Below are positions 8,530 to 63,466 of a DNA stretch of 64,000 bases, one piece after another. The notes under the pieces were generated by a model. The model was not told the DNA's origin and ran no database searches. It saw only the letters and a program-made list of their open reading frames with translations. The position numbers were made by a program, and so were the translations under genes. The DNA lies in NCBI GenBank assembly GCA_947044405.1, contig CAMRHE010000462.1:965001-1029000 (forward strand), given 5' to 3'. Position 1 is the first letter of the stretch; each line of letters opens with the position of its first letter. Source of the DNA: Leptodactylus fallax (Eukaryota; Chordata; Amphibia; Anura; Leptodactylidae).

Positions 8530-9170
8530 CAGTCATATGAAAAAGTTTGGGCACCCCTATTAATCTTAATCATTTTTAGTTCTAAATATTTGGGTGTTTG
8601 CAACAGCCATTTCAATTTGATATATCTAATAACTGATGGACACAGTAATATTTCAGGATTGAAATGAGGTTTATTGTACTAACAGAAAATGTGCAATATG
8701 CATTAAACCAAAATTTGACCGGTGCAAAAATTTGGGTACCCTTATCATTTTATTGATTTGAATACTCCTAACTACTTTTTACTGACTTACTGAAGCACAA
8801 AATTGGTTTTGTAACATCACTGAGCTTTGAACTTCGTAGCCAGGTGTATCCAATCATGAGAAAAGGTATTTAAGGTGGCCAATTGCAAGTTGTTCTCCTA
8901 TTTGAATCAGTAAGTCAGTAAAAAGTAGTTAGGAGTATTCAAATCAATAAAATGATAAGGGTACCCAAATTTTTGCACCGGTCAAATTTTGGTTTAATGC
9001 ATATTGCACATTTTCTGTTAGTACAATAAACCTCATTTCAATCCTGAAATATTACTGTGTCCATCAGTTAGTAGATATATCAAATTGAAATGTCTGTTGC
9101 AAACACCCAAATATTTAGAACTAAAAATGATCAAGATTAATAGGGGTGCCCAAACTTTTTCATATGACTG
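8530..9170. mobile_element. Fold-back, non-autonomous derivative of Tc1 family A
   Basis: The element has the same ends as family A (CAGTCATATG...CATATGACTG) and TA on both sides (8528-8529, 9171-9172). The left 263 bp (8530-8792) and the right 263 bp (8908-9170) are nearly perfect inverted copies separated by a 115-bp loop. In the full-length relative at 1331-2965 only about 210 bp are inverted. Here the right arm also carries the left-specific subterminal sequence, ending CAGTAAGTCAGT, so the original right end was replaced by an inverted copy of the left end. The transposase gene is gone. Confidence 0.93.
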
Positions 9171-9172
9171 TA

Positions 9173-10013
9173 TAGTACCATTAATACCATGGTACTGTAC
9201 ATTTGTGAAGTGGTTTACGTACATAGTATAAGTACAACAGTAAATACAATAAACACAGAACTAACTAGATGACTAACTTTATACAAGTAGGGAAGAGGGC
9301 TCTGCCAGGAAGGGTTTACAATCCATTGACAACCAATGACTGGAACATTTTGTTTTAACAAACTGACAGGATGAGAAATATTTTATAATATTTACAAGGA
9401 CTAATATGACTGACAAACAGAGATAACAAATTGTCACATGCAGACAGTGTTAAACATGGCTCCAGATCTTCTTAGAACAGCCACACTCTACAGAAACATC
9501 TGCCGTCTCTCCACAGAATGCACTGTGTATACGAGGTATACCATGGGTGAACATTACAAGTACTGCAAAAAAAAAATCCCCATCACACTTTTCATTCTAA
9601 AACACCACACCCAATTATCATCCAGAGCCAAAGTAATATTTTTCTCATCCAGCAGATAGAAACAAAATATATTTCTTAATATCATGCTTTAAATTGATCC
9701 ATTTTGCTAATGCTGGGAGACATTCCATAAAATAATCTTTTATCTCTTACTTATAACAGACTCAGAATAAGGCCATTATCTTACCTAATTTTTATTAAAA
9801 TTGCATTCATTAACCGTGATTGAATCCTTTAATGATCAGGATTGCAAGATTTCCAGAGCAGATTATTAGCATAGAAATCTGAATTGTCTTGTGCAGTGTG
9901 TATGGGGACAATGCACAAAATAATTATTCTATATGGTATACTGTACATAAAGGGGTATGGAGAAAGTTTCATAATATTACACACAGTATATGCTATGATG
10001 TAGCAGTATTTGC
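9173..10013. other. No recognisable feature
   Basis: AT-rich DNA without motif-bearing frames or visible repeat ends, apart from a short palindrome around 9175-9200 (GTACCATTAATACCATGGTAC). Confidence 0.5.
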
Positions 10014-13870: not shown

Positions 13871-14165
13871 GCATTTATTATATATCAACTGTAATGTAAA
13901 AAAAAATGGATTAATGGTGGACACAAAAGTGTGGTAGGATTAATTTCTCTGTCCATCAAAAACAAAAAGCAGACAGGGACAGACAGTTGACCAAAGGAAG
14001 TCAAAAGCAACAGTCTATATGTCTATACATTTTTGTTTTTTTTTATAAAAATATATCTGTCAGTTGGAGTGCAGTAACATAGTGTAGACATATTATGAGC
14101 TGCTATACAGGTGTAACCGCCCTCTACTGCATATCTATATGCAACTCATTTCATATGGAGGCATA

Positions 14166-15704
14166 CAGTGGATTGCAAAAATATTCATACCCCTTGAACT
14201 TTTTCACATTTTGTCACCTCACAACCACAAACTTAAATGTATTTTATTGAGATTTTAAGTGATAGACCAACACAAAGTAGCAGATAATTGTGAAGTGGAA
14301 CAAAAATGATACATGGTTTTCAGAATTTTAATCAAATAAAAATCTGAAATGTGTGACGTTGAAAAATATTCATCCCCCTGTACTCTGATACCCCTAAATA
14401 AACTCCAGTGCTATCAATTGCCTTCAGAAGTCACTTAATTAGTTAGTAGAGTCCAACTGTGTGTAAATTAGTCTCACTATAAATACACCTGTTCTGTGAA
14501 GGTCTCAGTGGTTTGTTAGAGAACACTAGTGAACAAACAGCATCATGAAGACCAAGGAACTCACCAGACAGGTCAGAGATAAAGTTGTGGAAAATTTTAA
14601 AGCAGGGTTAGGTTATAAAACCATATCACAAGCTTTGAGCATCCCAAGGAGCACTGGTTCAATCCATCATCCAAAAATGGAAAAAACAGTATTTTACAAC
14701 TGCAAACCTACCAAGACATGACCGTTCACCTAAACTGACAGATCGAGTAAGGAGGGCACTGGTCAGAGAAGCAGCCAAGAGGACCATGGTCAATCTGGAG
14801 TTGCTGCAGAAATCCACAGCTCAGGGGTAGAATCTGTCCACTGACAACTAAAAGTCGTGCACTTCACAAATCTGGCCTTTATGGAAGAGTGGCAAGAAGA
14901 AAACCATTGTTGAAAGAAAGACATAAGAAGTGCTGTTTGCAGTTTGCCACAAGCTATATAGAGGACACAGTAAACATGTGGAAGAAGGTGTCTGGTCAGA
15001 TGAGACCAAAGTTGAACTTTTTTGACCTAAATGCAAAGTGCTTTGTGTGGCAGAAAAGTAACAATGCTCATCACCTTGAACAACCATTTTCTTCAGCAGA
15101 GACAAGGAAGCTGGTCAGAATTGATGGACTGATGGATGGAACTAAATACAGGCCAATACTGAAAGAAAATCTGTTGAAGGCTGCAAAAGACTTGACTGGG
15201 AAGGAGATTCACCTTCCAGCAAGACAAAAACCCTAAGCATACATCCAGAGCTACAGTGGAATGGTTTAGATCAATGAATATTCATGTGTTAGAAAGGCCC
15301 AGTCAAAGTCCAGACTTAAATCCCATTGAGCATCTGTGGCAAGATATGAAAATTGCTGTTCACAGACGCTCTACATCAAATCTGGCTGAGCTTGAGCTAT
15401 TTTGCATAGAAAAATGGGCAAAAATCTCAGTCCCTAGATGTGCAAAGCTGGTAGAGACATACCCCAAAAGACTTGCAGCTGTAATTGCAGCGAAAGGTGG
15501 CTCCACAAAGTATTGATATAGGGGGGCTGAATATTTGATTAAAATTTTGAAAACCATGTATCATTTTTGTTCCATTTCAAAATTATGTGCTACTTTGTGT
15601 TGGTCTATCACTTAAAATCTCAATAAAATACATTTAAGTTTGTGGTTGTAAGATGACAAAATTTGAAAAAGTTCAAGAGGTATGAATACTTTTGCAAGGC
15701 ACTG
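14166..15704 (+). mobile_element. Tc1-like transposon (family C), decayed
   Basis: Begins CAGTGGATTGCAAAAATATT and ends with the related inverse AATACTTTTGCAAGGCACTG, with TA at 14164-14165 and 15705-15706. Inverted ends are roughly 200 bp. The element is 1539 bp and contains a frameshifted transposase. It belongs to the same family as 61271-63145 and is a relative of 17628-19259. Confidence 0.92.
14545..15516 (+). pseudogene. Tc1-like transposase pseudogene (family C)
   Basis: The start MKTKELTRQVRDKVVE is intact at 14545, but a frameshift near 14655 (an extra base after GAGCACTG) leads to a stop. Further frameshifts move the reading frame at about 14830, 15000 and 15200. Recognisable pieces are VARRKP (about 14890), [15 protein letters not shown] with the catalytic glutamate (about 15300), and the terminal KGGSTKY (ends 15516). 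QDNDPKH is altered to QDKNPKH. It cannot encode a working enzyme. Confidence 0.9.
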
Positions 15705-15856
15705 TACATAGGAGCTTTCTGTTTAATTCAATAATAACTGAACAACAAAAAAAATGCCAGGATCCATCAGTCTCTGTACACACACATTGCTTCTAGGGGA
15801 AAATAGAACTGTAGAGTCAGAGTCTATGGGAGTGCTTATGGCATGCAAAGAGGTTA

Positions 15857-17507: not shown

Positions 17508-17627
17508 CTTGGGTTTTCATCAGTGCACAGTATTCATTCTTGCTCTGTACCATAAACAAAGTTTTTAGCTCTTGACAATTTAGTTTTATGTGCATCATTT
17601 ATCAAAAAAATTCTGCACCAATATATA

Positions 17628-19259
17628 CAGTGCCTTGCGAAAGTATTCTGCCCCCTTGAACTTTTCAACCTTTTGCCACATTTCAGGCTTCAAACATAAG
17701 GATATAAAATTTAAATTTTTTGGTGAAGAATCAACAACAAGTGGGACACAATTGTAAAGTGGAACGAAATTTATTGGTTATTTTAAACTTTTGTAAAAAA
17801 TAAAAAACTGAAAAGTGGGGCGTGCAATATTATTCGGCCCCTTTACTTTCAGTGCAGAAAACTCACTCCAGAAGTTCAGTGAGGATCTCTGAATGATCCA
17901 ATGTTGTCCTAAATGACTGATGATGATAAATATAATCCACCTGTGCGTAATCAAGTCTCCGTATAAATGCACCTGCTCTGTGATAGTCTCAGGGTTCTGT
18001 TTAAAGCGCAGAGAGGATCATGAAGACCAAGGAACACACCAGGCAGGTCCGTGATACTGTTGTGGAGAAGTTTAAAGCCGGATTTGGATACAAAAAGATT
18101 TCCCAAACTTTAAACATCCCAAGGAGCACTGTGCAAGCAATCATATTGAAATGGAAGGAGTATCAGACCACTGCAAATCTACCAAGACCCAGCCATCCCT
18201 CTAAACTTTCATCTCAAACAAGGAGCAGGCTGATCAGAGATGCAGCCAAGAGGCCCATGATCACTCTGGATGAACTGCAGAGATCTACAGCTGAGGTGGG
18301 AGAGTCTGTCCATAGGACAACAATCAGTCGTACACTGCACAAATCTGGCCTTTATGGAAGAGTGGCAAGAAGAAAGCCATTTCTCAAAGATATCCATAAA
18401 AAGTCTCGTTTAAAGTTTGCCACAAGCCACCTGGGAGACACACCAAACATGTGGAAGAAGATGCTCTGCTCAGATGAAACCAAAATCGAACTTTTTGGCC
18501 ACAATGCAAAACGATATGTTTGTCGTAAAAGCAACACAGCTCATCACCCTGAACTCACCATCCCCACTGTCAAACATGGTGGTGGCAGCATCATGGTTTG
18601 GGCCTGCTTTTCTTCAGCAGGGACAGGGAAGATGGTTAAAATTGTTGGGAAGATGGATGGAGCCAAATACAGGACCATTCTGGAAGAAAACCTGTTGGAG
18701 TCTACAAAAGACCTGAGACTGGGACAGAGATTTATCTTCCAACAAGACAATGATCCCAAACATAAAGCAAAATCTACAATGGAATGGTTCACAAATAAAC
18801 GTATCCAGGTGTTAGAATGGCCAAGTCAAAGTCCAGACCTGAATCCAATCGAGAATCTGTGGAAAGAGCTGAAAACTGCTGTTCACAAACGCTCTCCATC
18901 CAACCTCACTGAGCTCGAGCTGTTTTCCAAGGAAGAATGGGCAAGAATTTCAGTCTCTCGATGTGCAAAACTGATAGAGACATACCCCAAGCGACTTGCA
19001 GCTGTAATCGCAGCAAAAGGTGGCGCTACAAAGTATTAACCTAAGGGGGCCGCATAATTTGGCTCGCCCCACTTTTCAGTTTTCTATTTTTTACAAAAGT
19101 TTAAAATAACCAATAAATTTCGTTCCACTTCACAATTGTGTCCCACTTGTTGTTGATTCTTCACCAAAAAATTAAAATTTTATATCCTTATGTTTGAAGC
19201 CTGAAATGTGGCAAAAGGTTGAAAAGTTCAAGGGGGCTGAATACTTTTGCAAGGCACTG
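17628..19259 (+). mobile_element. Full-length Tc1-like transposon (family D)
   Basis: A 1632-bp element with ends CAGTGCCTTGCGAAAGTATT and AATACTTTTGCAAGGCACTG, TA at 17626-17627 and 19260-19261, and inverted repeats of roughly 215 bp with few differences. It sits against a TA microsatellite, a natural TA-rich target. The transposase frame is uninterrupted. From memory, close relatives of these ends are common in teleosts and frogs. Confidence 0.96.
18020..19039 (+). CDS. Tc1-like transposase, uninterrupted (339 aa)
   Basis: The length and layout are those of a complete Tc1 transposase. A helix-turn-helix DNA-binding region occupies residues 1-110 (GYKKISQTLNIPRSTVQAII near 23-42), followed by a DD34E catalytic domain with D152 (SDETK), D243 (QQDNDPKH) and E278 (PIENLW). 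The glycine-rich KHGGGSIMVWAC segment is near 186, and the protein ends GGATKY. The ATG at 18020 follows the typical spacing from the left repeat and gives the family start MKTKE. Two conserved tryptophans appear changed to cysteine: C150 just before SDE, where relatives have W, and C168 in YVCRK. Activity may therefore be reduced despite the open frame. Confidence 0.94.
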   Translation: MKTKEHTRQVRDTVVEKFKAGFGYKKISQTLNIPRSTVQAIILKWKEYQTTANLPRPSHPSKLSSQTRSRLIRDAAKRPMITLDELQRSTAEVGESVHRTTISRTLHKSGLYGRVARRKPFLKDIHKKSRLKFATSHLGDTPNMWKKMLCSDETKIELFGHNAKRYVCRKSNTAHHPELTIPTVKHGGGSIMVWACFSSAGTGKMVKIVGKMDGAKYRTILEENLLESTKDLRLGQRFIFQQDNDPKHKAKSTMEWFTNKRIQVLEWPSQSPDLNPIENLWKELKTAVHKRSPSNLTELELFSKEEWARISVSRCAKLIETYPKRLAAVIAAKGGATKY

Positions 19260-19266
19260 TATATAT

Positions 19267-25029: not shown

Positions 25030-25400
25030 TGGCAGCCCAGGGGAGGTGACTGAAAATAATAAACACAAATTCTCACCTCTCCAGGGCGCAGCGTCCTCTC
25101 CGGCGCTCCTCTGTCATGTGACTGAGGCCTGTGATTAGGCCCCAGCGGTCACATGGGGCGCGGCCGCGTAATGACATCAGTGCGCCCCCACGTGACCGCT
25201 GAGGCCCAATCACAGGCCTCAGCAGCGACGTCAGAAAAGGGCCTGAAGACACCGAAGACGGCAGGATGGAGCGAGGATGCCAAGAAAACGTAAGGCAAGG
25301 TGAATATGAATGTTTGTTATTTTTAGTCACTTCCCCTGGGCCTCCAATTATTATACTCTGGGGTCTGAGGAGACCCCAGAGTATAGTAATAGCACTGAAG
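25030..25400. repeat. Dispersed repeat family M, copy 3
   Basis: A GC-rich block with the inverted pair TGAGGCCTGTGATTAGGCC and CGCTGAGGCCCAATCACAGG. It is followed by ATTATTATACTCTGGGGTCT, shared with 13840-13868. It leads straight into the tandem array. Confidence 0.6.
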
Positions 25401-25419
25401 TGGAGCGGAGGGGGCTATT

Positions 25420-25866
25420 GGGCGCATATAATACTGGATGGGGGCCATTGTAGAGAGCATATAATACTGGGTGGGGGCCACTGTGGAGTTATAATACTGG
25501 GTGGGGGCCACTGTGGAGCTTATAATACTGGGTGGGGGCCACTGCGGAGCTTATAATACTGGGTGGGGGCCACTGTGGAGGTTATAATACTGGGTGGGGG
25601 CCACTGTGGAGCTTATAATACTGGGTGGGGGCCACTGTAGAGCTTATAATACTGGGTGGGGGCCACTGTGGAGCTTATAATACAGGGTGGGGGCCACTGT
25701 AGAGCTTATAATACTAGGTGGGGGCCACTGTGGAGCTTATAATACTGGGTGGGGGCCACTGTGGAGGTTATAATACTGGGTAGGGGCCACTGTGGAGCTT
25801 ATAATACTAGGTGGGGGCCACTGTGGAGCTTATAATACTGGGTGGGGGCCACTGTGGAGCTTATAC
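25420..25866 (+). repeat. 31-bp minisatellite array
   Basis: About 14 head-to-tail copies of a 31-bp unit beginning ATAATACTGGGTGGGGGCCA and ending CTGTGGAGCTT. Most copies differ by one or two bases; the first two are shorter and more diverged. It lies inside the hAT-like element. Frames through it are repeat artefacts, not genes. Confidence 0.95.
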
Positions 25867-26306
25867 TCCATACAGTGGCTCCTTTCATTTTTTTTAAAAT
25901 TACGCCGGGGCAGGTGAAAAAAACAAAACAAAAAAACCCCCAAACTTTCTTTCCTGTCCCCAGTGTCTCCCAGCGCGGTTCGGTCCTGCAGTTCTGTTGT
26001 TTTCTTCCAGCTGAAGTTCCCTCTGCACATGACTACCTGTGACATCACGTGACCCCAGAGGCCAATCAGCGGCCTAAGGGAAGGGACCTGAGATGTCACA
26101 GCGGAGCTGCAGGACCGGACCGTGCTGGGGGGACACCAGAGCAACGGAGACAGGTGAATATGTTTAGTGTGTTTTTTTGTTTTTTTTTTTTGGGGGGGGG
26201 AGTAGGGGGGATTCACCTTCCCCGGACTAATTATTAAAAAAGAAAAAAAATTATACTGAACAACCTCTTTAAAGTGTGGCACATTAAGGGGGCCCTTGGG
26301 GGTATA

Positions 26307-33744: not shown

Positions 33745-34077
33745 CTACTACATCCATCTGGAAGCTGCATTTGTTTCTATAAAGTTACATCTTTTTATTC
33801 AATAATAACTACTGTCTCATGAGTGATTCCTGTACTTACCATGGAGGGCCCTTCTGACTACTATCACCTAACTCAGTGAGAGTAGAGGACTCCTACAACT
33901 GGAAGTGCCCTGGAGGAACTACCACCACCATTTAGCACACCGCAGGCCCCCTCAACAATGCTCCAACAAAGGAGGTGGGCTGAAGAAGTCGGTTGAGTGC
34001 TCTTGGCCACTGTTGACAATTAGTCCCATCCTCCAGTTCCCTCCAGTGGGTTGTGGCACTCAGATTTCCTGTATTCC
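33745..34077 (+). repeat. Unclassified dispersed repeat, plus copy
   Basis: Aligns with the reverse complement of 11520-11865 (CATCTGGAAGCTGC, CAACTGGAAGTGCCCT, ACTACCACCACCAT, GTTGAGTG, CCCATCCTCCAGTTCCCTCCA). The retrotransposon that follows inserted into it after GTATTCC. Confidence 0.6.
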
Positions 34078-35053
34078 TGTGAACCGAGAGCAAGGCAGGT
34101 GGTTTGGACTCCGCAACCAGAAATGAACGCACATGCGGTAGTTCAAGAAAAAAATATATATTTACTATAAGTTAATAAAGGCTAGTTAAAGGTAAAATGA
34201 CAGGGCTAAAGACAAGCAAAATATACAATATAGCATGAACAATTTCAAGGCAAATTCTGCAATGGTTTCTACTTTTACTCTGTCCACTTCTGCAGTATGG
34301 ACACTGAATGAACAATATACTCAAAACTATCCCTAACTGACCCTGACTTCACATTTGGGTGCACCCCCTTTTCCCCAGTGGTCCAGGTGGACCGCTTACA
34401 GTCCGTAGAAGCGCGCGGTGGGGCCCAAAGTCGGTCCTTTCTTTTATAGTGAAGCGTCCTCTCCTCACGGTTATCAGGATCTTGGGAGAAATGAAGTCCT
34501 CTTTAACAGACAGGGAAACCAACTGAATGCAATGTAATCCAACAGCAGATTCCACTCAGCACACTGACAGTCCTGCCGAATCCATACACTGAGCTGGGAT
34601 GTAAGCCGGGATTTAGCAGGTGCCGTCCAGTACATCAACAGCACTGCGAGTCTCTATCTGTGGTATCCATATACACAGTCACAATGTCAGTCTCACTGAT
34701 CAGCCACTGAGCACAGTTCCTTTCACGTGGACTCACTAGTCCTGTTGTCTCTTTACACTCTGTTTGTCTCTGGACCAAGATACAGCTTAGCTGTACAGAA
34801 AAATCTCCACACCAGTTCAATACAACACTTGCCAAGATGGCTGCTGCTCTCTGTCTCGTCACTTCCTGCTTCTCTGCTCACACTCTGTCTGCAGAACAGG
34901 CAAGCTGACATAAAAGGGGGGGGGTCTCACTCCAGCATCATGTCACAATTACAATGGCTGCTGTCTTAAAGGAACAGAATCACAGAAATACATTCAACAT
35001 TAACAGTTTATACAGACAAATGAAGCTTAAGACAACATTGGCTGTCTCTTACA
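34078..35053 (-). repeat. 3' LTR of the Ty3/gypsy element
   Basis: 976 bp. Read on the minus strand it begins TGTAAGAGACAGCCAATG (a CCAAT motif close to the start) and ends CTCGGTTCACA. A CTATAAAAG TATA-like box lies at 34441-34449 in the middle third. It differs from the 5' LTR only by two 1-base homopolymer indels (7 versus 8 A near 34150; 9 versus 10 G near 34920). No AATAAA was found just downstream of the TATA box; AGTAAA is a possible substitute. Confidence 0.96.
34441..34449 (-). promoter_or_regulatory. TATA-like box in the 3' LTR
   Basis: The minus strand reads CTATAAAAG. The same box is present in the 5' LTR at 40630-40638, where it would drive transcription of the element. Confidence 0.6.
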
Positions 35054-35067
35054 TATTCCCCCCCACT
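35054..35067 (-). promoter_or_regulatory. Polypurine tract
   Basis: The minus strand reads AGTGGGGGGGAATA immediately before the 3' LTR. It is the expected plus-strand priming site of an LTR retrotransposon. The pol stop codon lies just upstream (35068-35070). Confidence 0.88.
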
Positions 35068-38000
35068 TTAAGATTGGCAGTCCCTGCCTATGACTGTATA
35101 TCCAGAGGGTTGTACTTTTATGCACAGGGTGGTAGTATACCGATGTATGGCAGGCCAAACAAACTCATCCTGCGCATACCGAACAGGGGGAATACCAGCA
35201 TTTGGCCTAGTGGTCCGTCTGAGGACCGGTGGTATATTATGGGGTGCTGCAGCTATGGGCTGAGAAGGACCAGCGGATTCCGCACCAGAGGGGGCACAGG
35301 CCGGAGATACAGTAGTCACAGGTGGAACATCCCCAGGAGCAGGGATCGGCCAACAATCATCCTCCTCGTCGGAGGCCCATTCCGCACCTCCATTCTCTGA
35401 CTGTGGGAGCTCATTCACATTGGCAGGCCCATCGTGATTTGTCCCTTCAGAATGACACAGGCGCAACATATTTCGGTGAAGTACTCGAACACAATCAGTT
35501 CCTTCTTTCTGGACCTGGTACACTGGCCCATTCGCATACTTGCGGCCAACAACACGATACGGCAAAGCCTCCCATCTGCTTTCCAATTTCCCTTGGGGTT
35601 TCTTGACACGAACTAGCACCAGGTCGCCTGGTTGCAATGGTGCTTCTTGCACTGGGGTCTTATCAGGATGGGGATGTTCTTGCAGGTGCTGCCGCACCAA
35701 TCGATGGATCGTCTCAAGTCTCTGCCGATGCGCCCGCACCCAAGAGGTTGGATCCCTCGGAGGGAACCCATCCACATCATTCAACTGTAATTCTCCTATA
35801 CTTCGCCCAGACCGCCCAAAGAGAAGTGTATAAGGAGAGTACCCCGTTGTAGAATGGACCTGATTGTTATAGGCCCACACCATTTCAGACAAGAACTGAG
35901 GCCACTGTAACTTCTTGTCTTCCTCCAGAGTCCGCAGCATCTGTAGCAGAGTTCTGTTGAATCTTTCACAGGCCCCATTTCCCTGAGGGTGGTATGGAGT
36001 CGTGTGCGACTTCTTTATCCCGTAGATACGTTGAACTTCTTTCATTACGTGTCCCTCAAAGCAGGCGCCCTGGTCAGAGTGGATGCGTTGGGGGCACCCA
36101 TATACTCGAATGAAATCTTGGCACAGAGCACGAGCTGCTGACTCAGCTGTCTGGTCCTTGGTGGCGGTTACCACCGCAAATTTGGTGAAGTGATCCACCA
36201 TTACGAGGCAATACTGGTGTCCGCTATTGGATGGGCCCACCATTAGATAGTCTATCATGACGATTTCTAAAGGTTCCTGGGTCACGATGGTTTGCAGGGG
36301 AGCTCTCTGTTCTATTGCCTTATGGATCTCACAAGTTCGACAGCTGCGGCATACTTCTTCGACCATTTGACGAAGACCAGGGCAGTAAATCAGTCGCTGT
36401 AACCAACGAAAGGTCTTCTCATGACCAAAATGTCCATTCTTATTATGAGCCTCAACTGCCAACGAGCGAGCCAGTTCACTAGGCACCACAATTTGGTATC
36501 GAATGTCGATCTCAGAAGGTAAATAGACCTTTCGGCATAGCACTCCATTTTTCATCTCCAACTTTTCCCACTGACTCAAAACAGATAATATCTCACGTGT
36601 CAGTCGTTCTCTTTCCTCTCTACAGGGCTTCTGGCCTTTCTCAACACACTTGATCATCTGCGCCAGCCCCTCATGGGTCTGTTGTATCTGTGCCCATTCC
36701 TGTCGTGAGGGACCAAAGAAAGGAGCCATTTCAGTCCCCTCCATCTCAAACTGATTAGTGGCGGTCAAGGCCTGTGAAAATCTGCTGAAATCGGGCATCT
36801 CCACATGCTCCAACTCATGATCCACGTCTTCTGTGGGGGTCTGGGCAGTTACCCTAGAAAGTCCGTCAGCATTCTGGTTCTCTGTCTTGGACCGATACTT
36901 AATGCGGTAATTGAATGTAGACATTCGGGCTATCCACCTCTGCTCTAACGCCCCGAGCTTGGCATTTTCCAGGTGAGCTAGTGGGTTGTTGTCAGTCAGT
37001 ACTAAAACTTCAGCACCGGTCAAATATTCAGAGAATTTCTCGGTCATGGCCCATACCAGTGCCAACAGCTCCAATTTAAATGAACTATAATTCTCGGGGT
37101 TTCTTTCAGAATCTCTCAAAGACCGGCTGCCGTACGCTATGACCCTCTCCTGGCCATCCTGAAGCTGGGAAAGCACTGCTCCAAGACCATACAGGCTTGC
37201 ATCTGTATATAGCTGGAACGGCAAGTGGTAATCAGCATATGCCAAGATTGGGGCTGTTGTCAGTGCATCCTTCAATGCCTGGAAGGCTTGTTCCTGTTCA
37301 GGTCCCCACTTCACGGACCGGTTCTTTGGACCACCGGATGTGCCTCGTAGGAGAGCATTAAGTGGTGCTGCTACCTTGGCGAAATCCTTAATAAACCGTC
37401 GATAGTAACCGGCTACTCCAAGGAACGCCCTCACTTCTCGCAGGGTAGTCGGTATCGGCCAATCTTGAACAGCCGCTATCTTGTCTCTTGATGGTCTCAC
37501 CCCTTCTCCTGATACGCGGTGACCCAAGTAATCAATTTCAGATTGGAACAACCGACATTTACTGGGTTTCAATTTGAGCCCATGTTCCCGCAATCTTCGA
37601 AATACTTGCCCCAACTGGTGGAGATGGTCTTCAAAGGTCGCAGAATACACTATAATGTCATCCAAGTAGATGAGAGTGAACTCAAAGTTGAAGTCACCGA
37701 GACATTTCTCCATCAACCGCTGAAACGTTCCGGGTGCATTTGTCAACCCGAAGGGCATCCGGTTAAATTCGTATAGTCCCATGGGCAAGATGAATGCCGT
37801 CTTCTCCTTGTCTTTTGTGGCCATCGGCACCTGCCAATACCCACTAGCCAGATCTAGTGAGGAGAAGTACCGGGCTCTCCCTAGCGCTGAGAGGGACTCC
37901 TCAATCCGTGGCAAGGGGTAGGAATCTCGTACGGTGCAAGCGTTTAACTTCCGATAGTCTACGCAAAATCGGATGGACCCATCTTTTTTTCTTACTAACA

Positions 38001-39156
38001 CCACAGGAGCCGCCCAGGGACTCTGGCTTTCTTGGATGATCCCACCCTGTAGCATCTTAGCTAACAGTTCTTTCACTTCCTGATACAACTGTGGAGGAAT
38101 TTGTCGGTAGCGCTCTCTAATTGGAGGGGTGTCTCCTGTGGGAATCTCATGGTAGATCCCTGTGGTACATCCAAAATCTTCAGCATACCGTGCAAAGGTG
38201 GCTTGGTTCTCCCACAACAGCTCATCTACCTTCTGCACCCATTCCAGAGAACATGAACTTACATCCATCTTCATCTGTTCTCGAATTGCACAGCCATTCC
38301 ATTCAGAGGTGGGTTCCTCATCTTCTCCCATGGACACAGTTACGGTCCACTCATCCCTTTCAGTCGGCTTCAGCTGCATTGGAGTTACTTTCCTTACTTC
38401 CTCCGGAGTCACATAGATGTTAGCCAGCAGCCTCCCTGGGGTCAGGTCCACACTCTGGTCCTGAGTGTTTACACATCGAAGTGGTACTCTTCCATTGCGA
38501 ACTATTGCCAAGGAACGGGCCACTAGCGGATCAACACCTCCTTCGGCTGCCTGCAGTGGTTCTACCAACACAGCTATGCCCTCTAGTTTCCGACAGGTGC
38601 CTACGGGCATGGACACTATTGTCTCCCGACTGGGTGGCAGTGTAACTTTTGTATGCAAAGGAACTGAAATTCGAGCCAGAGGACGCTGTGCATCTGAACT
38701 TTTCTGTAAGCCACATGTCCGGATCAGCCGCTGGAAAGCTGTTTGAGTAGGCCGATGGGTGGTGGTTTCTTTCCAATAACCGTGACCTTTCTTTTCAAAG
38801 AGGATCTGATCTAATTCTTTTAACACATTCATCCCCAAAATGACAGGGACCTTTACTTCATGTGACTCCTGTACCACCACAATGCCTTTCCTACCTAGAT
38901 CTTGGCCACATACCCGGACATTCACCCAGGCCACTCCCACAACCGGAACTGGTAACTGGTTAGCTGCGACCACTCGTACGAATGTATGGGGATCATATTT
39001 CACATGTTGCCGGAAGTACCGTTCATAACAGTCTCTACTCAAGGTCGTTACTTGGGAACCTGTGTCAATCATCCCGGTAACCGGAATACCCTCCATTTCC
39101 ACCTGTATGACAGGACTTGCAGCGATCAGGTCATCATCAGGGCATTCTCCCCACAT
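35068..39156 (-). CDS. pol: Ty3/gypsy Pol polyprotein (protease, RT, RNase H, integrase)
   Basis: A 1362-codon open frame makes the replication enzymes of the element. An aspartic protease has its active site DTGS at residues 31-34. The reverse transcriptase spans roughly 340-560, with SSLDLASGYW (D435) and YLDD at 497-500. RNase H lies near 640-770, with D652 in YTDAS, E696 and D722. Integrase starts near 895 with an HHCC zinc finger (H904, H909, C939, C942) and a DD35E core: D969, D1028 in SDQG, and E1064 in CERFNR. A GDLVLVR module follows in the C-terminal part. All catalytic residues are present and no stop interrupts the frame. The frame stays open for 23 codons upstream of the first ATG to a stop at 39226-39228 and overlaps gag. 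It is therefore most likely made as a Gag-Pol fusion by -1 frameshifting rather than from this ATG. Confidence 0.97.
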   Translation of the reverse strand: MWGECPDDDLIAASPVIQVEMEGIPVTGMIDTGSQVTTLSRDCYERYFRQHVKYDPHTFVRVVAANQLPVPVVGVAWVNVRVCGQDLGRKGIVVVQESHEVKVPVILGMNVLKELDQILFEKKGHGYWKETTTHRPTQTAFQRLIRTCGLQKSSDAQRPLARISVPLHTKVTLPPSRETIVSMPVGTCRKLEGIAVLVEPLQAAEGGVDPLVARSLAIVRNGRVPLRCVNTQDQSVDLTPGRLLANIYVTPEEVRKVTPMQLKPTERDEWTVTVSMGEDEEPTSEWNGCAIREQMKMDVSSCSLEWVQKVDELLWENQATFARYAEDFGCTTGIYHEIPTGDTPPIRERYRQIPPQLYQEVKELLAKMLQGGIIQESQSPWAAPVVLVRKKDGSIRFCVDYRKLNACTVRDSYPLPRIEESLSALGRARYFSSLDLASGYWQVPMATKDKEKTAFILPMGLYEFNRMPFGLTNAPGTFQRLMEKCLGDFNFEFTLIYLDDIIVYSATFEDHLHQLGQVFRRLREHGLKLKPSKCRLFQSEIDYLGHRVSGEGVRPSRDKIAAVQDWPIPTTLREVRAFLGVAGYYRRFIKDFAKVAAPLNALLRGTSGGPKNRSVKWGPEQEQAFQALKDALTTAPILAYADYHLPFQLYTDASLYGLGAVLSQLQDGQERVIAYGSRSLRDSERNPENYSSFKLELLALVWAMTEKFSEYLTGAEVLVLTDNNPLAHLENAKLGALEQRWIARMSTFNYRIKYRSKTENQNADGLSRVTAQTPTEDVDHELEHVEMPDFSRFSQALTATNQFEMEGTEMAPFFGPSRQEWAQIQQTHEGLAQMIKCVEKGQKPCREERERLTREILSVLSQWEKLEMKNGVLCRKVYLPSEIDIRYQIVVPSELARSLAVEAHNKNGHFGHEKTFRWLQRLIYCPGLRQMVEEVCRSCRTCEIHKAIEQRAPLQTIVTQEPLEIVMIDYLMVGPSNSGHQYCLVMVDHFTKFAVVTATKDQTAESAARALCQDFIRVYGCPQRIHSDQGACFEGHVMKEVQRIYGIKKSHTTPYHPQGNGACERFNRTLLQMLRTLEEDKKLQWPQFLSEMVWAYNNQVHSTTGYSPYTLLFGRSGRSIGELQLNDVDGFPPRDPTSWVRAHRQRLETIHRLVRQHLQEHPHPDKTPVQEAPLQPGDLVLVRVKKPQGKLESRWEALPYRVVGRKYANGPVYQVQKEGTDCVRVLHRNMLRLCHSEGTNHDGPANVNELPQSENGGAEWASDEEDDCWPIPAPGDVPPVTTVSPACAPSGAESAGPSQPIAAAPHNIPPVLRRTTRPNAGIPPVRYAQDEFVWPAIHRYTTTLCIKVQPSGYTVIGRDCQS

Positions 39157-39172
39157 AGTCTCCTTGTCAGTC

Positions 39173-39204
39173 TCCCCTACTACACGCCCTTCAGCAGCAG
39201 GGGA
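39173..39204 (-). promoter_or_regulatory. Candidate frameshift-stimulating stem-loop
   Basis: On the minus strand TCCCCT (39199-39204) can pair with AGGGGA (39173-39178) around a 20-base loop. It starts 5 bases after the slippery heptamer, within the usual spacing. Pairing beyond 6 bp and a pseudoknot were not established. Confidence 0.5.
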
Positions 39205-39206
39205 CT

Positions 39207-40232
39207 TCAGTTTAACGGCGGTCTCTCATAAGTTTGTCGCTGCTCTGGACATCTAGCAGCAACGTGGCCCATCCGTCCACACTCCCAGCAGCGTATCCCC
39301 CGTCGTTCTGGCCATCTGTTTGGGCCCCTTCGGTAAGCCCCTTCGATTTCTCCTGAGCACTGCACTAAATGATTTGGACCCCTTCGGTAGGTCCTATCCT
39401 CACCCCTCCAGCGGGGTGGTGGGTGATTCTGACTTGCTGGGTGTGGATGGCTCACCCTTTCATCTCCAGTCTTCTGGAAGTCTGCAATTTTCATAGACTG
39501 CTCATCACAACGAGTGTGCAAGTGTTCCATTTGTTCTTGCAGTTTCTGCATTACTGTGAGAATTTCTTTAACCGTCCCTTTTTCTACTGTCTCTGAGCCA
39601 GAACTAGCCCCCTGTGACAAAGTAACTCCAACTGCGGTCTGCGGCCTCGGGACCATACTATTGGCACGGGAGATGGCCTCTACCTGTACATCATGGAATT
39701 TAGCATCAGTCTCTCGTCGTATAAAATCCTGCATAGTCACAGTTAAACTGCCGTCACGTATCCCCAGGACAAACTGGTCACGGAGAGTCCGATCAGGGTT
39801 ACAGAAGGCTGGCGAGCCCCCTCTTTCCTTCCTTTGAATATCTCGGAGCAGTTCTTGTAGGGCATTTGCATATTGGGGAAGGCTTTCATCCTCCTGTTGT
39901 ACCCTCTGGAAGAACCGAGCCTGCAGAGACCCCAGCAATGCAGTTTCTCCATAGATGGTTTCTAGAATCTGGACTACTTGCTCAAATGTCTGCCTTTGTT
40001 CAAATGGCCTCAGTATCACCGTGGTCTTAGCATCCCCTTGTAATGTCAATGTTGCTAGCTCTACTAGTACTTCTGGTGCGGTCTGGTACATTCGCTGTAT
40101 CATTCGTATCTGTTCCACCCACATACTCACTGACATATTATTGCCATCAAATTTAGCTAACTGACTCATTATAGCCCCTGCTGGCATTCTTCCTCCAGCA
40201 CCATTCTCCCGAACGGGTGCGTCACCGTCCAT
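39207..40232 (-). CDS. gag: Ty3/gypsy Gag
   Basis: A 341-aa protein that would form the particle and bind the element RNA. The ATG at 40232 (MDGDAPVREN) was chosen because the primer-binding site ends only 12 bases upstream of it; the open frame runs further into the LTR but without support. Residues about 20-220 form an acidic, helix-rich capsid-like region (SMWVEQIRMIQRMYQ near 33, ESLPQYANALQELL near 130). The C-terminus has basic YRRGPN repeats and one CCHC zinc knuckle, CWECGRMGHVAARC, at residues 315-328. The stop TGA at 39207-39209 follows the slippery heptamer, and pol overlaps in the -1 frame. No disruption is visible. Confidence 0.95.
   Translation of the reverse strand: MDGDAPVRENGAGGRMPAGAIMSQLAKFDGNNMSVSMWVEQIRMIQRMYQTAPEVLVELATLTLQGDAKTTVILRPFEQRQTFEQVVQILETIYGETALLGSLQARFFQRVQQEDESLPQYANALQELLRDIQRKERGGSPAFCNPDRTLRDQFVLGIRDGSLTVTMQDFIRRETDAKFHDVQVEAISRANSMVPRPQTAVGVTLSQGASSGSETVEKGTVKEILTVMQKLQEQMEHLHTRCDEQSMKIADFQKTGDERVSHPHPASQNHPPPRWRGEDRTYRRGPNHLVQCSGEIEGAYRRGPNRWPERRGIRCWECGRMGHVAARCPEQRQTYERPPLN
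39210..39216 (-). promoter_or_regulatory. Candidate -1 ribosomal frameshift site GTTAAAC
   Basis: The minus strand reads G TTA AAC TGA in the gag frame, so the heptamer lies directly before the gag stop (39207-39209). Pol lies in the -1 frame, and slipping back one base gives GTT AAA CTG, which runs open into pol. GTTAAAC is a known functional slippery heptamer (described for equine arteritis virus). Use here is inferred. Confidence 0.78.
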
Positions 40233-40244
40233 TCTGGTAAGCGG

Positions 40245-40262
40245 ATCCTGCCGACTACGCCA
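40245..40262 (-). promoter_or_regulatory. Primer-binding site, tRNA-Ser type
   Basis: The minus strand reads TGGCGTAGTCGGCAGGAT, 3 bases after the 5' LTR. Its complement, ATCCTGCCGACTACGCCA, equals the 3' end of vertebrate tRNA-Ser of the AGA/TGA type plus CCA, recalled from memory; all 18 bases match. Confidence 0.85.
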
Positions 40263-40265
40263 ATT

Positions 40266-41243
40266 TGTGAACCGAGAGCAAGGCAGGTGGTTTGGACTCC
40301 GCAACCAGAAATGAACGCACATGCGGTAGTTCAAGAAAAAAAATATATATTTACTATAAGTTAATAAAGGCTAGTTAAAGGTAAAATGACAGGGCTAAAG
40401 ACAAGCAAAATATACAATATAGCATGAACAATTTCAAGGCAAATTCTGCAATGGTTTCTACTTTTACTCTGTCCACTTCTGCAGTATGGACACTGAATGA
40501 ACAATATACTCAAAACTATCCCTAACTGACCCTGACTTCACATTTGGGTGCACCCCCTTTTCCCCAGTGGTCCAGGTGGACCGCTTACAGTCCGTAGAAG
40601 CGCGCGGTGGGGCCCAAAGTCGGTCCTTTCTTTTATAGTGAAGCGTCCTCTCCTCACGGTTATCAGGATCTTGGGAGAAATGAAGTCCTCTTTAACAGAC
40701 AGGGAAACCAACTGAATGCAATGTAATCCAACAGCAGATTCCACTCAGCACACTGACAGTCCTGCCGAATCCATACACTGAGCTGGGATGTAAGCCGGGA
40801 TTTAGCAGGTGCCGTCCAGTACATCAACAGCACTGCGAGTCTCTATCTGTGGTATCCATATACACAGTCACAATGTCAGTCTCACTGATCAGCCACTGAG
40901 CACAGTTCCTTTCACGTGGACTCACTAGTCCTGTTGTCTCTTTACACTCTGTTTGTCTCTGGACCAAGATACAGCTTAGCTGTACAGAAAAATCTCCACA
41001 CCAGTTCAATACAACACTTGCCAAGATGGCTGCTGCTCTCTGTCTCGTCACTTCCTGCTTCTCTGCTCACACTCTGTCTGCAGAACAGGCAAGCTGACAT
41101 AAAAGGGGGGGGGGTCTCACTCCAGCATCATGTCACAATTACAATGGCTGCTGTCTTAAAGGAACAGAATCACAGAAATACATTCAACATTAACAGTTTA
41201 TACAGACAAATGAAGCTTAAGACAACATTGGCTGTCTCTTACA
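40266..41243 (-). repeat. 5' LTR of the Ty3/gypsy element
   Basis: 978 bp, otherwise identical to the 3' LTR by eye. It contains the same CTATAAAAG box (40630-40638) and would hold the promoter for the genomic RNA. Short open frames inside it recur identically in the other LTR and are not genes. Confidence 0.96.
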
Positions 41244-41946
41244 TTCCCATCTCCATTTTCCACCCAAAATCTGCAAGCCTGATATTGTCCTATAATCCAA
41301 TACCTTGAGATTGTCACTGTGACAATGATAATCCATCACTGTATATGGCACCTAAAAGAACCTGTACAGCAGTGCATGGAAGCCATGCAGCTACAAACTA
41401 GGCAGCCATATGTCGGTAGTGCAGAGCCATGTGCAAGGGACCTATCTTACTAATCACCCAAGATGTACAACACACAAAAAAAAAAATCACAATAAGATAC
41501 AAATATATAAACTAGAAAAATAAACTAATGTAAACTATTAACATTTCAAGAATTGATGTGCTATACTTAATATTTGATTCTTCCCTCTGCTGTTTCTCTT
41601 GAGGTTCCTGCAGGGAGATGGCCCCAAGCTTGTGACGGATGTTTGTTATACTGTTCCATTGTAAGAAGTGCTGAGTTATTCGTATTTCCCAGCATGCACT
41701 GTTTAAACTAGTGACGTGCTGTGCACTTGTGTTTATTCATGAATGGGTTTATTCATCCTGTCAATGACATTTCTGAATTATTATGAGTCCCTGCAAGAAC
41801 ACACTGTATGATTATATAAAATATTGTCAATTCTAGTGAATAGAGAGAGAAACATGTCATACCTCACTACACAATCAAAAACATGGCAGGTATGTACATG
41901 GTGATATTGCTGTAGTAGTCTTGACAAGTATTTAGCTTCCTTCTCC
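41244..41946. other. No recognisable feature
   Basis: Right flank of the retrotransposon. No gene motif seen. Confidence 0.5.
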
Positions 41947-55349: not shown

Positions 55350-56515
55350 AAATAAACCAAAGACATAAGCTCACAGATAAAATATTGATAATACCATACA
55401 TCTTTATTCATAAATACATAAATTACAGTAAATACATAAGGAAGACAAAGATAACCACACATTGATATATTCCACAATGGTGAGATTAATTAGACTCATC
55501 ATTCAGTTGCTGTACCCATCCAAACATAATATTCTATAGTATCAAATCAATACCCAAGAAAGAGTAAAATGCAATTAATCAAGAAGTAGTATAGCCAAGG
55601 GTCAGGGAAAGCAACTAATATTATATAAATATAATGACCCTATACAAACCATTTGGAAGGAACGTGCCCCCTACACAAACCATGTGAAAGGAACGTGCCC
55701 CCAATACAAACTGTGTGGAAGGAATGCACCCCTCTATACAAACCATGTGCAAGGAACACACTCCCCTATACAAACAATTTGGAAGAAACACGCCCCCTAT
55801 ACAAACCAAGTGGAAGTAATGTGGCTCCCATGCAAACCATGTGGAAGGAATGCACCCTGTACGCAAACTATGTGGAATAAACGTGCCCCCGATACAAGCC
55901 ATGTGGAAGGAACGCGCCCCCTATGCAAACCATTTGGAAGAAATGCGTCCCCTATACAAACCATGTGGAAGGAACGCGCCCCCTATGCAAACCATGTGGA
56001 AGGAATGCAACCACTATACATACCATGTGGAAGGAACATGCCCCTATACAAACCTTGTGGAAGGAACATGCCCCTATACAAACCATGTGGAAGAAACACG
56101 CCCTCTATACAAATCATGCGGAAGGAACGTGCCCCCTATGCAAACCATGTGGAAGGAATGCAACCACTATACATACCATGTGGATAATGCATGTTCCTTC
56201 TACGTGGTTTGTATAGGGTTATTTTATTTATATACTATCAGTTGCTTTCCCTGGACCTTGGTTATACTACTTCTTGATTGATGTGCATTTTAGCCTTTCT
56301 TGAGTTGATACTAGCACTCTGTGTATTGATTAGATACTATGGAATAATATATTTGGATGGGTACAGTAATTGAATGATGGGCCTTATTAATTCTCTATCT
56401 CACCATTGTGGAATATATCCTTGTGTGGTTTTTAACTTTGTCCTCCTATGAATCTATGAATAAAAATGTATGGTAATATCAATAATTCCTATGCTTATGT
56501 CTTTAGTTTATGCAA
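55350..56515. mobile_element. Large inverted-repeat (fold-back-like) element enclosing a minisatellite
   Basis: The left arm (about 55350-55640) and right arm (about 56186-56515) are inverted over roughly 300 bp. Examples are AAAGACATAAGC versus GCTTATGTCTTTAG, TATATTCCACAATGGTGAGA versus TCTCACCATTGTGGAATATA, AATCAAGAAGTAGTATAGCC versus TATACTACTTCTTGATTG and GGGAAAGCAACTAATA versus ATCAGTTGCTTTCCC. Arms are about 80-90 percent alike by eye, with small indels. No target duplication could be fixed, so transposon status is inferred. No coding capacity. Confidence 0.82.
55633..56186 (+). repeat. Minisatellite of about 31-bp units
   Basis: About 18 copies of a unit such as CTATACAAACCATGTGGAAG followed by GAACGYGCCCC, mostly 30-31 bp. 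It occupies the loop of the inverted repeat. One reversed unit (CCTTCTACGTGGTTTGTATA) occurs at 56193-56213, showing that the arm itself carries the unit. Confidence 0.93.
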
Positions 56516-60873: not shown

Positions 60874-61956
60874 GAATTAGAAGTTCAAATGACCCCACTT
60901 TCCCTATAATACCTATAAGTAGAAAATTACAGTAAAACACATACACATTAGGTATCCCTGTGTCTGAAAATGCCCGGTCTACAAACTACAAAAATATTTT
61001 TCCCGTACAGCAGAAAAAACCATCAAAAGTGCCAAATCGACGTTTCGCCTCTGATAAAAATTGGAATAAAAAGTGATCAACGCAATAGACATTCCCCAAA
61101 GTGGTATAACTAAAAAGTAAATCTGACCCTGAAAAATAAGATGCCGCATGCATCCCCGTACACATAATTATAAAAAAGTTGCGGGTGTCAGAATATGGCA
61201 ACTTTAAGAAAACATCTTTTTTGCAATGTTTTGTATTTGTAAAGGGGTTAAAATGTAATTAAAACTATATACAGTGGCTTGCAAAGGTATTCATACCCCT
61301 TGAACTTTTTCACATTTTGTTACCTTACAACCACAAAGTTAAATGTATTTTATTGAGAGTCTAAGTGATAGACCGACACAAAGTTGCAGATAATTGTGAA
61401 GTGGAACGAAAATGATACATGGTTTTCAAAATTTTAATAAAATAAAAATCTAAAAAGTGTGATGTGCAAAAGTATTCAGCCCCCTGTACTCTGATACCCC
61501 TAAATAAAATCCAGTGCAATCAATTGCCTTCAGAAGTCACTTAATTAGTTCATAGACTCCAGCTGTGTGTAATGTAGTCTCACTATAAATACACCTGCTC
61601 TGTGAAGGCCTCAGTGGTTTGTTAGAGAACACTAGTGAACAAACAGCATCATGAAGACTAAGGAACTCACCAGACAGGTCAGAGATAAAGTTAAGGAGAA
61701 GTTTAAAGCAGGGTTAGGTTATAAAAACATATCCCAAACTTTGAGCACCCTAAGGAGCACTGTTCAATAGATCATCCAAAAATGGAAAAAGTATTCTACA
61801 ACTGCAAACTACCAAGACATGACCGTCTACCTAAACTGACAGATCGAGTAAGAAGAGCACTGGTCAGAGAAGCAGCCAAGAGGCCCATGGTTACTCTGGA
61901 GGAGCTGCAGAAATCCACAGCTCAGGTGGGAGAATCTGCCCACAGGACAACTATAA

Positions 61957-62230
61957 GGGCAGCACGGTGGCTCAGTGGTTAGCACTACAGCCTTGTAGCA
62001 CTGGAGTCCTGGGTTCGAAGCCTGCCAAGGACAACAACATCTGCAAGGAGTTTGTATGTTCTCCCCGTTTTTGCGTGGGTTTCCTCCGGGTACTCTGGTT
62101 TCCTCCCACACTCCAAAGACATACTGATAGGGAATGTAGATTGTGAGCCCTATATGAGACAGTGACTGTCAATGTTTGTAAAGCACTGCAGAATATGATG
62201 CGCTATATAAGTAAGCATAATAAATAAATA
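61957..62230 (+). mobile_element. tRNA-derived SINE with intact A and B boxes
   Basis: The head GGGCAGCACGGTGGCTCAGTGG is tRNA-like. The A box TGGCTCAGTGG (61968-61978) and B box GGTTCGAAGCC (62012-62022) fit the RNA polymerase III consensus, with tRNA-like spacing of about 33 bp. The body (TTTCCTCCGGGTACTCTGG, CACACTCCAAAGACATACTG) and an AATAAATAAATAA tail follow. It interrupts the transposase codons between ACAACTATAA and GTTGTGCAC. Two further copies are at 41947-42200 and 51470-51615. The target duplication is unclear. Confidence 0.92.
61968..62022 (+). promoter_or_regulatory. Internal RNA polymerase III promoter of the SINE
   Basis: A box TGGCTCAGTGG and B box GGTTCGAAGCC, both matching the tRNA consensus at every defined position. 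Confidence 0.8.
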
Positions 62231-63466
62231 AGTTGTGCACTACACATATCTGGCCTTTATGGAAGAGTGGCAAGAAGAAAACCATTGTTGATAGAAAGAC
62301 ATAAGAAATGCTGTTTACAGTTTACCACAAGCCATGTAGGGGACACAGCAAACATGTGGGAGAAGGTGCTCTGGTCAGATTAGACCAAAGTTGAACTTTT
62401 TGGCCTAAATGCAAAGCGCTATGTGTGACGGAAAAGTAACTATGCTCATCACCCTGAACACCATCCCCACTGTGAAACATGGTGGTGGCACCATCATGCT
62501 GTGGGGATGCTTTTCTTCAGCAGTGACTGGTAAGCTGGTCAGAGTTGATGGGAAGATGGATGGAGATAAATACAGGGCAATCCTGGAAGAAAACCTGTTT
62601 GGAGGCTGCAAAAGACTTGAGACTGGATAGGAGACCCAGTCACCTTCCAGCAAGACAATGAGCCAGAGCTACAGTGGAATGGTTTAGATCAAAGAATATT
62701 CATGTGTTAGAATGGCCCAGTCAAAGTCCAGACCTAAATCCCATTGAGCATCTGTGGCAAGACATGAAAATTGCTGTTCATAGTCGCTCTCCATCCAATC
62801 TGGCTGAGCTTGAGCTAATTTGCAAAAAAGAATGGGTAAAAATCTCAGTCTCTAGTTGCGCAAAGCTGGTAGAGACATACCCCAAAAGACTTGCAGCTGT
62901 AATTGCAGTGAAAGGTGGCTCTACAAAGTATTGATATAGGGGGCTGAATACTTTTGCACGTTACATTTTTCAGATTTTTATTTCATTAAAATTTTGAAAA
63001 CCATGTATCATTTTCATTCCACATCACAATTATCTGCTACTTTGTGTTGGTCTATCACTTAAAATCTCAATAAAATACATTTAAGTTTCTGGTTGTAAGG
63101 TGACAAAATGTGGAAAAGGGGTATGAATACTTTTGCAAGGCACTGTAAATTTGGTATCCTCAGAATCATACTGAAACATAGAATACAGATTTGGCTGCAC
63201 AGTGAATGCCATAAAAATGAAGCCCATAATAAAGTTGCACAAATGCACTTTTTCTCCAATTCTCCACCCCATTCTGAATTTTTTTCTAGCTTCCCAGTAC
63301 ATTGTACATAATAATAAATGGTACCATTATGAAGAACAATTTGTCCCGCAAACATTAAGCTCTCATATGACTTTGTGAATGGAAAAATAAAAAACTTCTT
63401 ATGGGGTCTGGTAGGTGGGGAGTCAAAAACAAAAATCAAAAAATGCCTTCGGTGGGACGAGGTTAA

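What the first reader, a model, noticed from the sequence alone, without database searches (positions are those of the whole stretch)
34078..41243. Structurally complete, very young Ty3/gypsy element
By eye the two LTRs (976 and 978 bp) differ only by one A and one G in homopolymers. Gag and the 1362-codon Pol have no stop. PBS, PPT, TG...CA ends and a TTCC target duplication are all present. All protease, RT, RNase H and integrase catalytic residues are visible. This is the signature of a very recent, possibly still mobile insertion, unlike the decayed neighbours.
Basis: partly seen in the sequence, partly recalled or inferred. Interest (0 to 1): 0.75.

Follow-up and report, generated by a model that had tools for sequence, protein, structure and literature searches.

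The report
Young frog Ty3/gypsy jumping gene copy
This is a complete, very recently inserted copy of an ordinary virus-like jumping gene (an LTR retrotransposon) in what looks like a frog genome, where several equally fresh sister copies show that the family has been spreading lately.

Summary
Window 34078-41243 holds a full-length Ty3/gypsy (Metaviridae-type) element on the minus strand. Its LTRs (978 and 976 bp) show no substitution and two one-base homopolymer differences. It has a 4-bp duplication (TTCC), an 18-nt PBS-like site, a PPT, open gag and pol, and the PR, RT, RNase H and IN catalytic motifs.

"Young" is supported by the window's own 2.5-Gb assembly: 40 LTR matches scored of 104 candidates. 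Including the window's, 26 LTR pairs were compared; 18 have 4-bp duplications, with 0-13 substitutions (median 2.5), and 3 of these 18 have none.

Additions: Pol is probably made as Gag-Pol by -1 frameshifting (GTTAAAC, 5-nt spacer, 11-bp stem); the Gag capsid is of the PNMA kind; the nearest RT relative found is from the frog Leptodactylus fuscus (84%).

Correction: not all neighbours are decayed; two Tc1 elements also have open transposase frames. No empty allele, transcript or movement was shown.

Verdict: a genuine, well-preserved new member of a well-known kind. Recent Ty3 activity in frogs is already published, so interest is low.

The parts
40266..41243 (-). 5' LTR (978 bp), TGTAAGAG...GGTTCACA; TATAAAAG box about 607 bases in (read by eye)
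34078..35053 (-). 3' LTR (976 bp), no substitution against the 5' LTR
34074..34077 (.). TTCC, left copy of the 4-bp target duplication
41244..41247 (.). TTCC, right copy of the 4-bp target duplication
40245..40262 (-). primer-binding site TGGCGTAGTCGGCAGGAT, 3 bases downstream of the 5' LTR; that it matches a tRNA-Ser 3' end is recalled, not confirmed
   Evidence: attempts at confirmation: 0 papers; not answered
39207..40232 (-). gag, 341 aa: PNMA-type capsid (best Pfam stretch 34-135) and one CCHC knuckle (314-330)
39210..39216 (-). slippery heptamer G_TTA_AAC directly before the gag stop (TGA 39209-39207)
   Evidence: identical in 18 of 19 matched sister copies, 20 places fetched
39173..39204 (-). 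11-bp hairpin (arms 39194-39204 and 39173-39183), 5 nt after the heptamer: proposed frameshift stimulator
35068..39225 (-). pol open frame (-1 relative to gag): PR, RT, RNase H, IN, then about 250 aa without a Pfam match
35055..35069 (-). polypurine tract AAAGTGGGGGGGAAT, overlapping the pol stop codon; only 14 bases lie between that stop and the LTR, so there is no env gene

Best explanation
A full-length, recently inserted, probably autonomous Ty3/gypsy LTR retrotransposon of a frog, without env and without a detectable chromodomain, belonging to a family that has been spreading recently in this genome. Proposed cycle: the LTR promoter drives a genomic RNA; most ribosomes stop after Gag, a few slip back one base at G_UUA_AAC (helped by the hairpin) and make Gag-Pol; a PNMA-type capsid packages the RNA; a tRNA (probably tRNA-Ser) primes cDNA synthesis at the PBS; the PPT primes the second strand; IN inserts the copy with a 4-bp target duplication. 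Shown: anatomy, open frames, catalytic motifs, the 4-bp duplication at many sites, and recent spread to many sites. Inferred: promoter use, frameshifting, primer identity, present-day activity and the frog host.
For: LTRs 0/976 substitutions. Pol domains in Ty3 order. RT-RNase H: the best solved relatives are Ty3 chains (4ol8 E 3.4e-77, 7q5b 8.4e-77), then 'Enzymatic polyprotein' 8r0s (5.9e-45) and Gag-Pol 8wus (5.3e-28). Own assembly: 40 LTR matches among 40 scored of 104 candidates. Of the 39 other LTR places, 30 have internal sequence beside them (two of them are the two ends of one copy) and 9 do not. 17 of 25 other LTR pairs, and this one, have 4-bp duplications, with 0-13 substitutions. 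The -1 frame upstream of pol's ATG is conserved in P0035, whose RT is 67% identical (FKLKVPVAEG against VKLKSPAAEG). A slip-residue motif occurs in 9 of 25 eligible relatives against 0.41 by shuffling. The capsid profile matches PNMA2 structures (8rb3 E 1.7e-8, 8uyo 6e-8). The RT tree joins window and Leptodactylus fuscus (99/94) inside a set of frog and unnamed rows.
Against: No RNA, small-RNA or population data. A search of the own genome with an RT piece returned nothing, not even the window itself, so internal copies could not be counted that way; the gag-piece search did not complete. The slip-motif pattern was written after looking at the rows, and 16 of 25 rows lack it. The hairpin's z-score falls from -2.65 (51 nt) to -1.01 (119 nt). 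The Gag structure prediction failed (pLDDT 33.5). LTR identity could in principle be helped by gene conversion or assembly collapse.
Confidence: 0.93

Rival explanations
1. An older insertion whose LTRs were made identical by gene conversion between LTRs, or by assembly collapse.
For: Only the two LTRs of one assembly can be compared; the two differences lie in homopolymers, where sequencing errors are common.
Against: Two other loci with different flanks and different 4-bp duplications (TGTG, TACT) also have 0 substitutions, and eight more copies with duplications have 1-3. In 29 of 30 sister places the internal stretch beside the LTR is at least 98.0% identical to the window's. CpG in the internal part is less depleted (0.58) than in the surroundings (0.27-0.28).
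Confidence: 0.05
2. A still-mobile element, moving in today's germline, rather than one that stopped some hundred thousand years ago.
For: Zero substitutions (95% upper bound K 0.0031, that is at most 1.5 My at 1e-9 or 0.5 My at 3e-9 per site per year, rates from passages of PMC12822217); open frames; recent sister copies.
Against: No expression, piRNA or polymorphism data; the left-flank search shows no second allele of the locus in the assembly.
Confidence: 0.5
3. Pol starts on its own at ATG 39156 (reinitiation or a spliced RNA) instead of through -1 frameshifting.
For: An ATG stands 50 bases after the gag stop; several relatives' predicted Pol proteins begin with a Met shortly upstream of the protease.
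Against: The frame upstream of that ATG is conserved in some relatives; heptamer, 5-nt spacer and 11-bp stem sit exactly at the gag stop; the heptamer is identical in 18 of 19 matched sister copies, although these are too young for that to weigh much.
Confidence: 0.1

Closest known systems
Unnamed Ty3/gypsy Pol proteins of frogs (P0003 Leptodactylus fuscus, 84% RT-RNase H identity; also Eleutherodactylus coqui, Ranitomeya imitator, Anomaloglossus baeobatrachus, 74-75%)
   Same: RT-RNase H sequence; the tree joins window and P0003 at 99/94
   Different: 16% or more divergent in RT-RNase H; several of those records are partial or composite gene predictions
PNMA-type Gag metaviruses of amphibians, reptiles and fish (PMC11011659, passages read)
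   Same: Capsid profile matches PNMA2; a CCHC knuckle follows the capsid
   Different: The capsid match begins at Gag residue 34, which leaves no room for the N-terminal RNA-binding domain described there
Amphibian chromoviruses (Amn-san; PMC4131045, passages read)
   Same: Ty3/gypsy elements of frogs, reported as the most active type there
   Different: No chromodomain found in the last 259 aa of Pol at E up to 10; that paper reports one in about 80% of Amn-san elements
Human PNMA3/PNMA5, domesticated Gag genes with -1 frameshifting (PMC5009743, passages read)
   Same: PNMA-type capsid; PNMA3 shifts -1 at a heptamer with a 3' pseudoknot
   Different: Host genes without any Pol domain; here the shifted frame is a whole Pol, and a pseudoknot is not established

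Membership tests
Ty3/gypsy (Metaviridae) | Pol order PR-RT-RNase H-IN with RT closest to Ty3 | tested here: met
Ty3/gypsy (Metaviridae) | LTRs with TG...CA, PBS, PPT, target duplication | tested here: met
   the tRNA that fits the PBS is recalled, not confirmed
Ty3/gypsy (Metaviridae) | active-site residues of PR, RT, RNase H, IN | tested here: met
   (sequence only; RNase H and IN read by eye off the alignments)
Chromovirus branch | chromodomain at the IN C-terminus | tested here: not met
   no Pfam match at E up to 10 in the last 259 aa (HMMER's filters drop most matches above about 0.1)
Errantivirus / Retroviridae | env gene after pol | tested here: not met
   only 14 bases between the pol stop and the LTR
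PNMA-type Gag | PNMA capsid domain | tested here: met
   profile of 9 capsid pieces: 8rb3 E 1.7e-8; by itself the window's Gag scores 24.2 bits, just under Pfam's cut-off of 25, and PNMA2 only E 0.87
PNMA-type Gag with RNA-binding domain | N-terminal RNA-binding domain before the capsid | tested here: not met
   capsid match begins at Gag residue 34; no separate search for that domain was made
-1 programmed frameshift cassette | slippery heptamer, short spacer, 3' stem | tested here: met
   GTTAAAC, spacer TGAAG, 11-bp stem; GUUAAAC with spacer 5 is listed for equine arteritis virus in PMC3835772
-1 programmed frameshift cassette | pseudoknot | tested here: inconclusive
   loop AGGGC could pair with GCCCU downstream (by eye); not scored
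currently mobile element | transcripts, polymorphic insertions | not testable with these tools
   no reads or second genome held

The most novel reading that the evidence does not exclude
A living, still-spreading frog retrotransposon that joins a PNMA-type capsid to Pol by a -1 frameshift. It would be a present-day representative of the kind of element from which mammalian PNMA genes, including the frameshift of PNMA3/PNMA5, were domesticated.
Probability: 0.3. Interest if true: 0.45.

Novelty: new member of a known kind. Interest (0 to 1): 0.2.

Why it matters
Recently active Ty3 elements are reported to correlate with frog genome size (PMC12822217, passages read). A datable family with sister copies, solo LTRs and a clear 4-bp target rule is a good case for measuring that activity. 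Its PNMA-type Gag and proposed frameshift give a natural comparison for the domesticated PNMA genes. Nothing here is of a new kind.

Tried and rejected
Structure of Gag from a two-row alignment: pLDDT 33.5, not used. IMG/VR scan with the RT piece: no match to its patterns. Paper search for the recalled tRNA-Ser 3' sequence: 0 papers. Rfam at gathering cut-offs and ARAGORN on the window: nothing. Chromodomain: none found. Other copies of this element elsewhere in the window: only chance-level DNA matches (best E 0.32) and no protein-level match. Empty site: the left flank is an old dispersed repeat (1499 candidates, 40 scored, next best 74% over 575 bases, parts of others 70-83%); only this locus matches at 100%, so no empty allele was seen. 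Against three repeat copies the match stops 18, 24 and 78 bases before the insertion, and the right flank does not match them. The right-flank search did not complete, nor was the gag-piece copy search. The RT-piece copy count returned nothing, not even the window itself, and is not used.
Full report
Observation. The element lies on the minus strand at 34078-41243. Self-comparison gives two LTRs, 40266-41243 (978 bp, 5') and 34078-35053 (976 bp, 3'). MAFFT shows no substitution in 976 columns and one-base differences in a C run and a T run. The flanks read ...GTATTCC and TTCCCAT..., a 4-bp duplication. Three bases downstream of the 5' LTR is TGGCGTAGTCGGCAGGAT, a PBS-like 18-mer. The tract AAAGTGGGGGGGAAT ends one base before the 3' LTR. 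Gag (39207-40232) has 341 aa. The pol frame is open from 39225 to its stop at 35070-35068, 1385 codons, 1362 of them from the first ATG. Pfam places protease, RT, RNase H, IN zinc-binding and IN core in Ty3 order. DTG and YLDD are present, and alignments to Ty3 RT and PFV integrase show the RNase H and D,D35E residues.

How Pol is made. Pol is in the -1 frame relative to gag, and its open frame overlaps the end of gag by 19 bases (39225-39207). In that overlap stands G_TTA_AAC, followed at once by the gag stop; a 5-base spacer after the heptamer leads to an 11-bp stem. GUUAAAC with a 5-base spacer is listed for equine arteritis virus (PMC3835772, one passage). The stem is in the best fold of all three lengths tried; the fold is more stable than shuffles at 51 and 89 nt (z -2.65 and -2.23) but not clearly at 119 nt (z -1.01). 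Residues read in the -1 frame before pol's ATG are conserved: P0035, whose RT is 67% identical, has FKLKVPVAEG where the window has VKLKSPAAEG. Of the 121 proteins held from the first two protein searches, 69 have a D-T-G-S/A protease motif by my pattern; 25 of these reach 45 or more residues upstream, and 9 of these 25 carry [FVLI]K[LR] followed by P after 1-4 residues, against 0.41 expected by shuffling. The pattern was chosen after seeing the rows; 16 of 25 lack it, among them Gag-Pol proteins in one frame such as P0101 of Engraulis. P0001, a Gag 83% identical to the window's, ends in the same ...ERPPLN. Of 20 junction pieces fetched from sister places, 19 matched; 18 of 19 have the same heptamer and stop and the other has ATTAAAC; 18 of 19 keep both stem arms exactly and the other has a C-to-T change that leaves a G-U pair. 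These copies are too young for that to be strong evidence.

Gag. Pfam PNMA scores 24.2 bits, just under its cut-off of 25, and a CCHC knuckle passes its cut-off. With Gag alone PNMA2 appears only at E 0.87. A profile of nine capsid pieces finds PNMA2 structures first (8rb3 E 1.7e-8, 8uyo E 6e-8), then MOAP1 (E 0.0063); the remaining three hits look unrelated, at E 0.4 to 0.65. The structure prediction of Gag failed. PNMA domains in frog Ty3 elements are already reported (about 30% of Cer and 16% of Gmr elements; PMC4131045, passages), and metaviruses with the PNMA-family architecture, said to be still active in amphibians, reptiles and fish, are described in PMC11011659 (passages). Which named Ty3/gypsy clade this element belongs to was not tested.

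Relatives and host. A search scored on RT-RNase H alone gives 7963 matches among 7964 scored candidates, 120 listed; the highest identity listed is 84%, to Leptodactylus fuscus. A 42-row tree, the window and 41 rows that I picked from 118 usable ones, joins the window and that row at 99/94; the nine-row set around it (100/98) holds two further L. fuscus rows, Ranitomeya, Eleutherodactylus, Anomaloglossus and two unnamed rows. That the host is a frog of the hyloid group is inference, and 'hyloid' for these genera is recalled; the assembly is unnamed.

Copies in the same genome. The LTR piece 34078-34900 was searched in the window's own assembly (2,504,722,884 bases, 2215 contigs): 104 candidates, 40 scored, 40 matches, 20 of the 40 (this locus included) at 99-100% as printed. 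I fetched the 39 other places. 12 are left LTRs and 17 right LTRs with internal sequence beside them, 1 (C427) has internal sequence on both sides, and 9 have none; L017 and L025 are the two ends of one copy. Of those 9, 7 have a 4-bp duplication, 1 has 6 matching bases in a TG repeat, and 1 is a partial LTR with 2 matching bases: mostly solo LTRs. Partner LTRs were examined in 27 cases and found in 25 (not in L030 and L039). L020 and L023, and the right partner of L010, were dropped because the partner ran off the contig. With the window, 26 pairs were compared. 18 have a 4-bp duplication, with 0-13 substitutions and a median of 2.5; 3 of the 18, the window's included, have none. The 8 pairs without a full duplication include two contig edges, two shortened LTRs, the C427 tandem and probable recombinants; their substitutions run from 2 to 25.

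Age. Zero of 976 gives a 95% upper bound of K 0.0031, at most 1.5 My at 1e-9 or 0.5 My at 3e-9 per site per year; the rates are quoted from PMC12822217 (passages). CpG observed/expected is 0.53 in the element (0.58 internal, 0.37 in the LTR) against 0.27-0.28 in the rest of the window, where 2-kb stretches outside the element run from 0.11 to 0.46. This agrees with youth for the internal part, but coding composition also plays a part and the LTR does not stand out.

Insertion site. The 600-base left flank matches at 100% only at this locus. The next best match is 74% over 575 bases; with 1499 candidates, 40 scored, it is an old dispersed repeat. Against three of its copies the match stops 18, 24 and 78 bases before the insertion. 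No second allele was found, so polymorphism is untested.

Neighbours. Two Tc1/mariner elements, 1329-2968 and 17621-19266, have transposase frames of 335 and 339 aa from the first Met, with HTH and DDE domains, and terminal repeats about 98% and 96% alike. So the LTR pair is the most alike of the element-end pairs compared in this window, but this is not the only element with open frames.

Verdict. A correct observation with a mostly correct reading: an ordinary, very well preserved young Ty3/gypsy copy. The frameshift cassette, the PNMA-type capsid and the dated sister copies are additions; none makes it a new kind. Whether this very family has been named in print was not settled.

Noticed in passing
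1329-2968: Tc1/mariner element with about 214-bp terminal repeats (98% alike), TA ends and an open 335-aa transposase; its protein is 88% identical to one from the fish Fundulus heteroclitus and 90% over 41% of its length to one from Ranitomeya imitator.
   Followed up: partly
17621-19266: Second Tc1/mariner element with 225-bp terminal repeats (96%) and an open 339-aa frame from the first Met; apparently broken relatives at 14163-15711 and 61265-63150.
   Followed up: partly
8526-9174: 649-bp palindrome (arms 268 nt, 99%, 113 nt between them) made of the ends of the Tc1 element at 1329-2968: a fold-back derivative.
   Followed up: no
25396-25953 and 55606-56197: Two tandem arrays, both with a 31-bp period; the self-comparison, shown in part, lists no similarity between them.
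   Followed up: no
39336-39389 (Gag residues 282-299): Gag carries an 18-residue stretch absent from its 83%-identical relative P0001; it begins with a YRRGPN motif that recurs right after it, like a short tandem duplication.
   Followed up: no
L010 with L048 (G000 C427): Sister place in which an LTR has internal sequence on both sides, as in an LTR-internal-LTR-internal tandem; the right end runs off the contig.
   Followed up: partly
L015 with L053 (G000 C83): Full-length LTR pair with 8 substitutions and no target duplication: probably a recombinant between two copies.
   Followed up: no
window 36912-37912 against the own assembly: A 1001-base RT piece found nothing in the own assembly, not even the window, whereas the LTR piece did; the reason is unknown (perhaps a filter for common words).
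   Followed up: no
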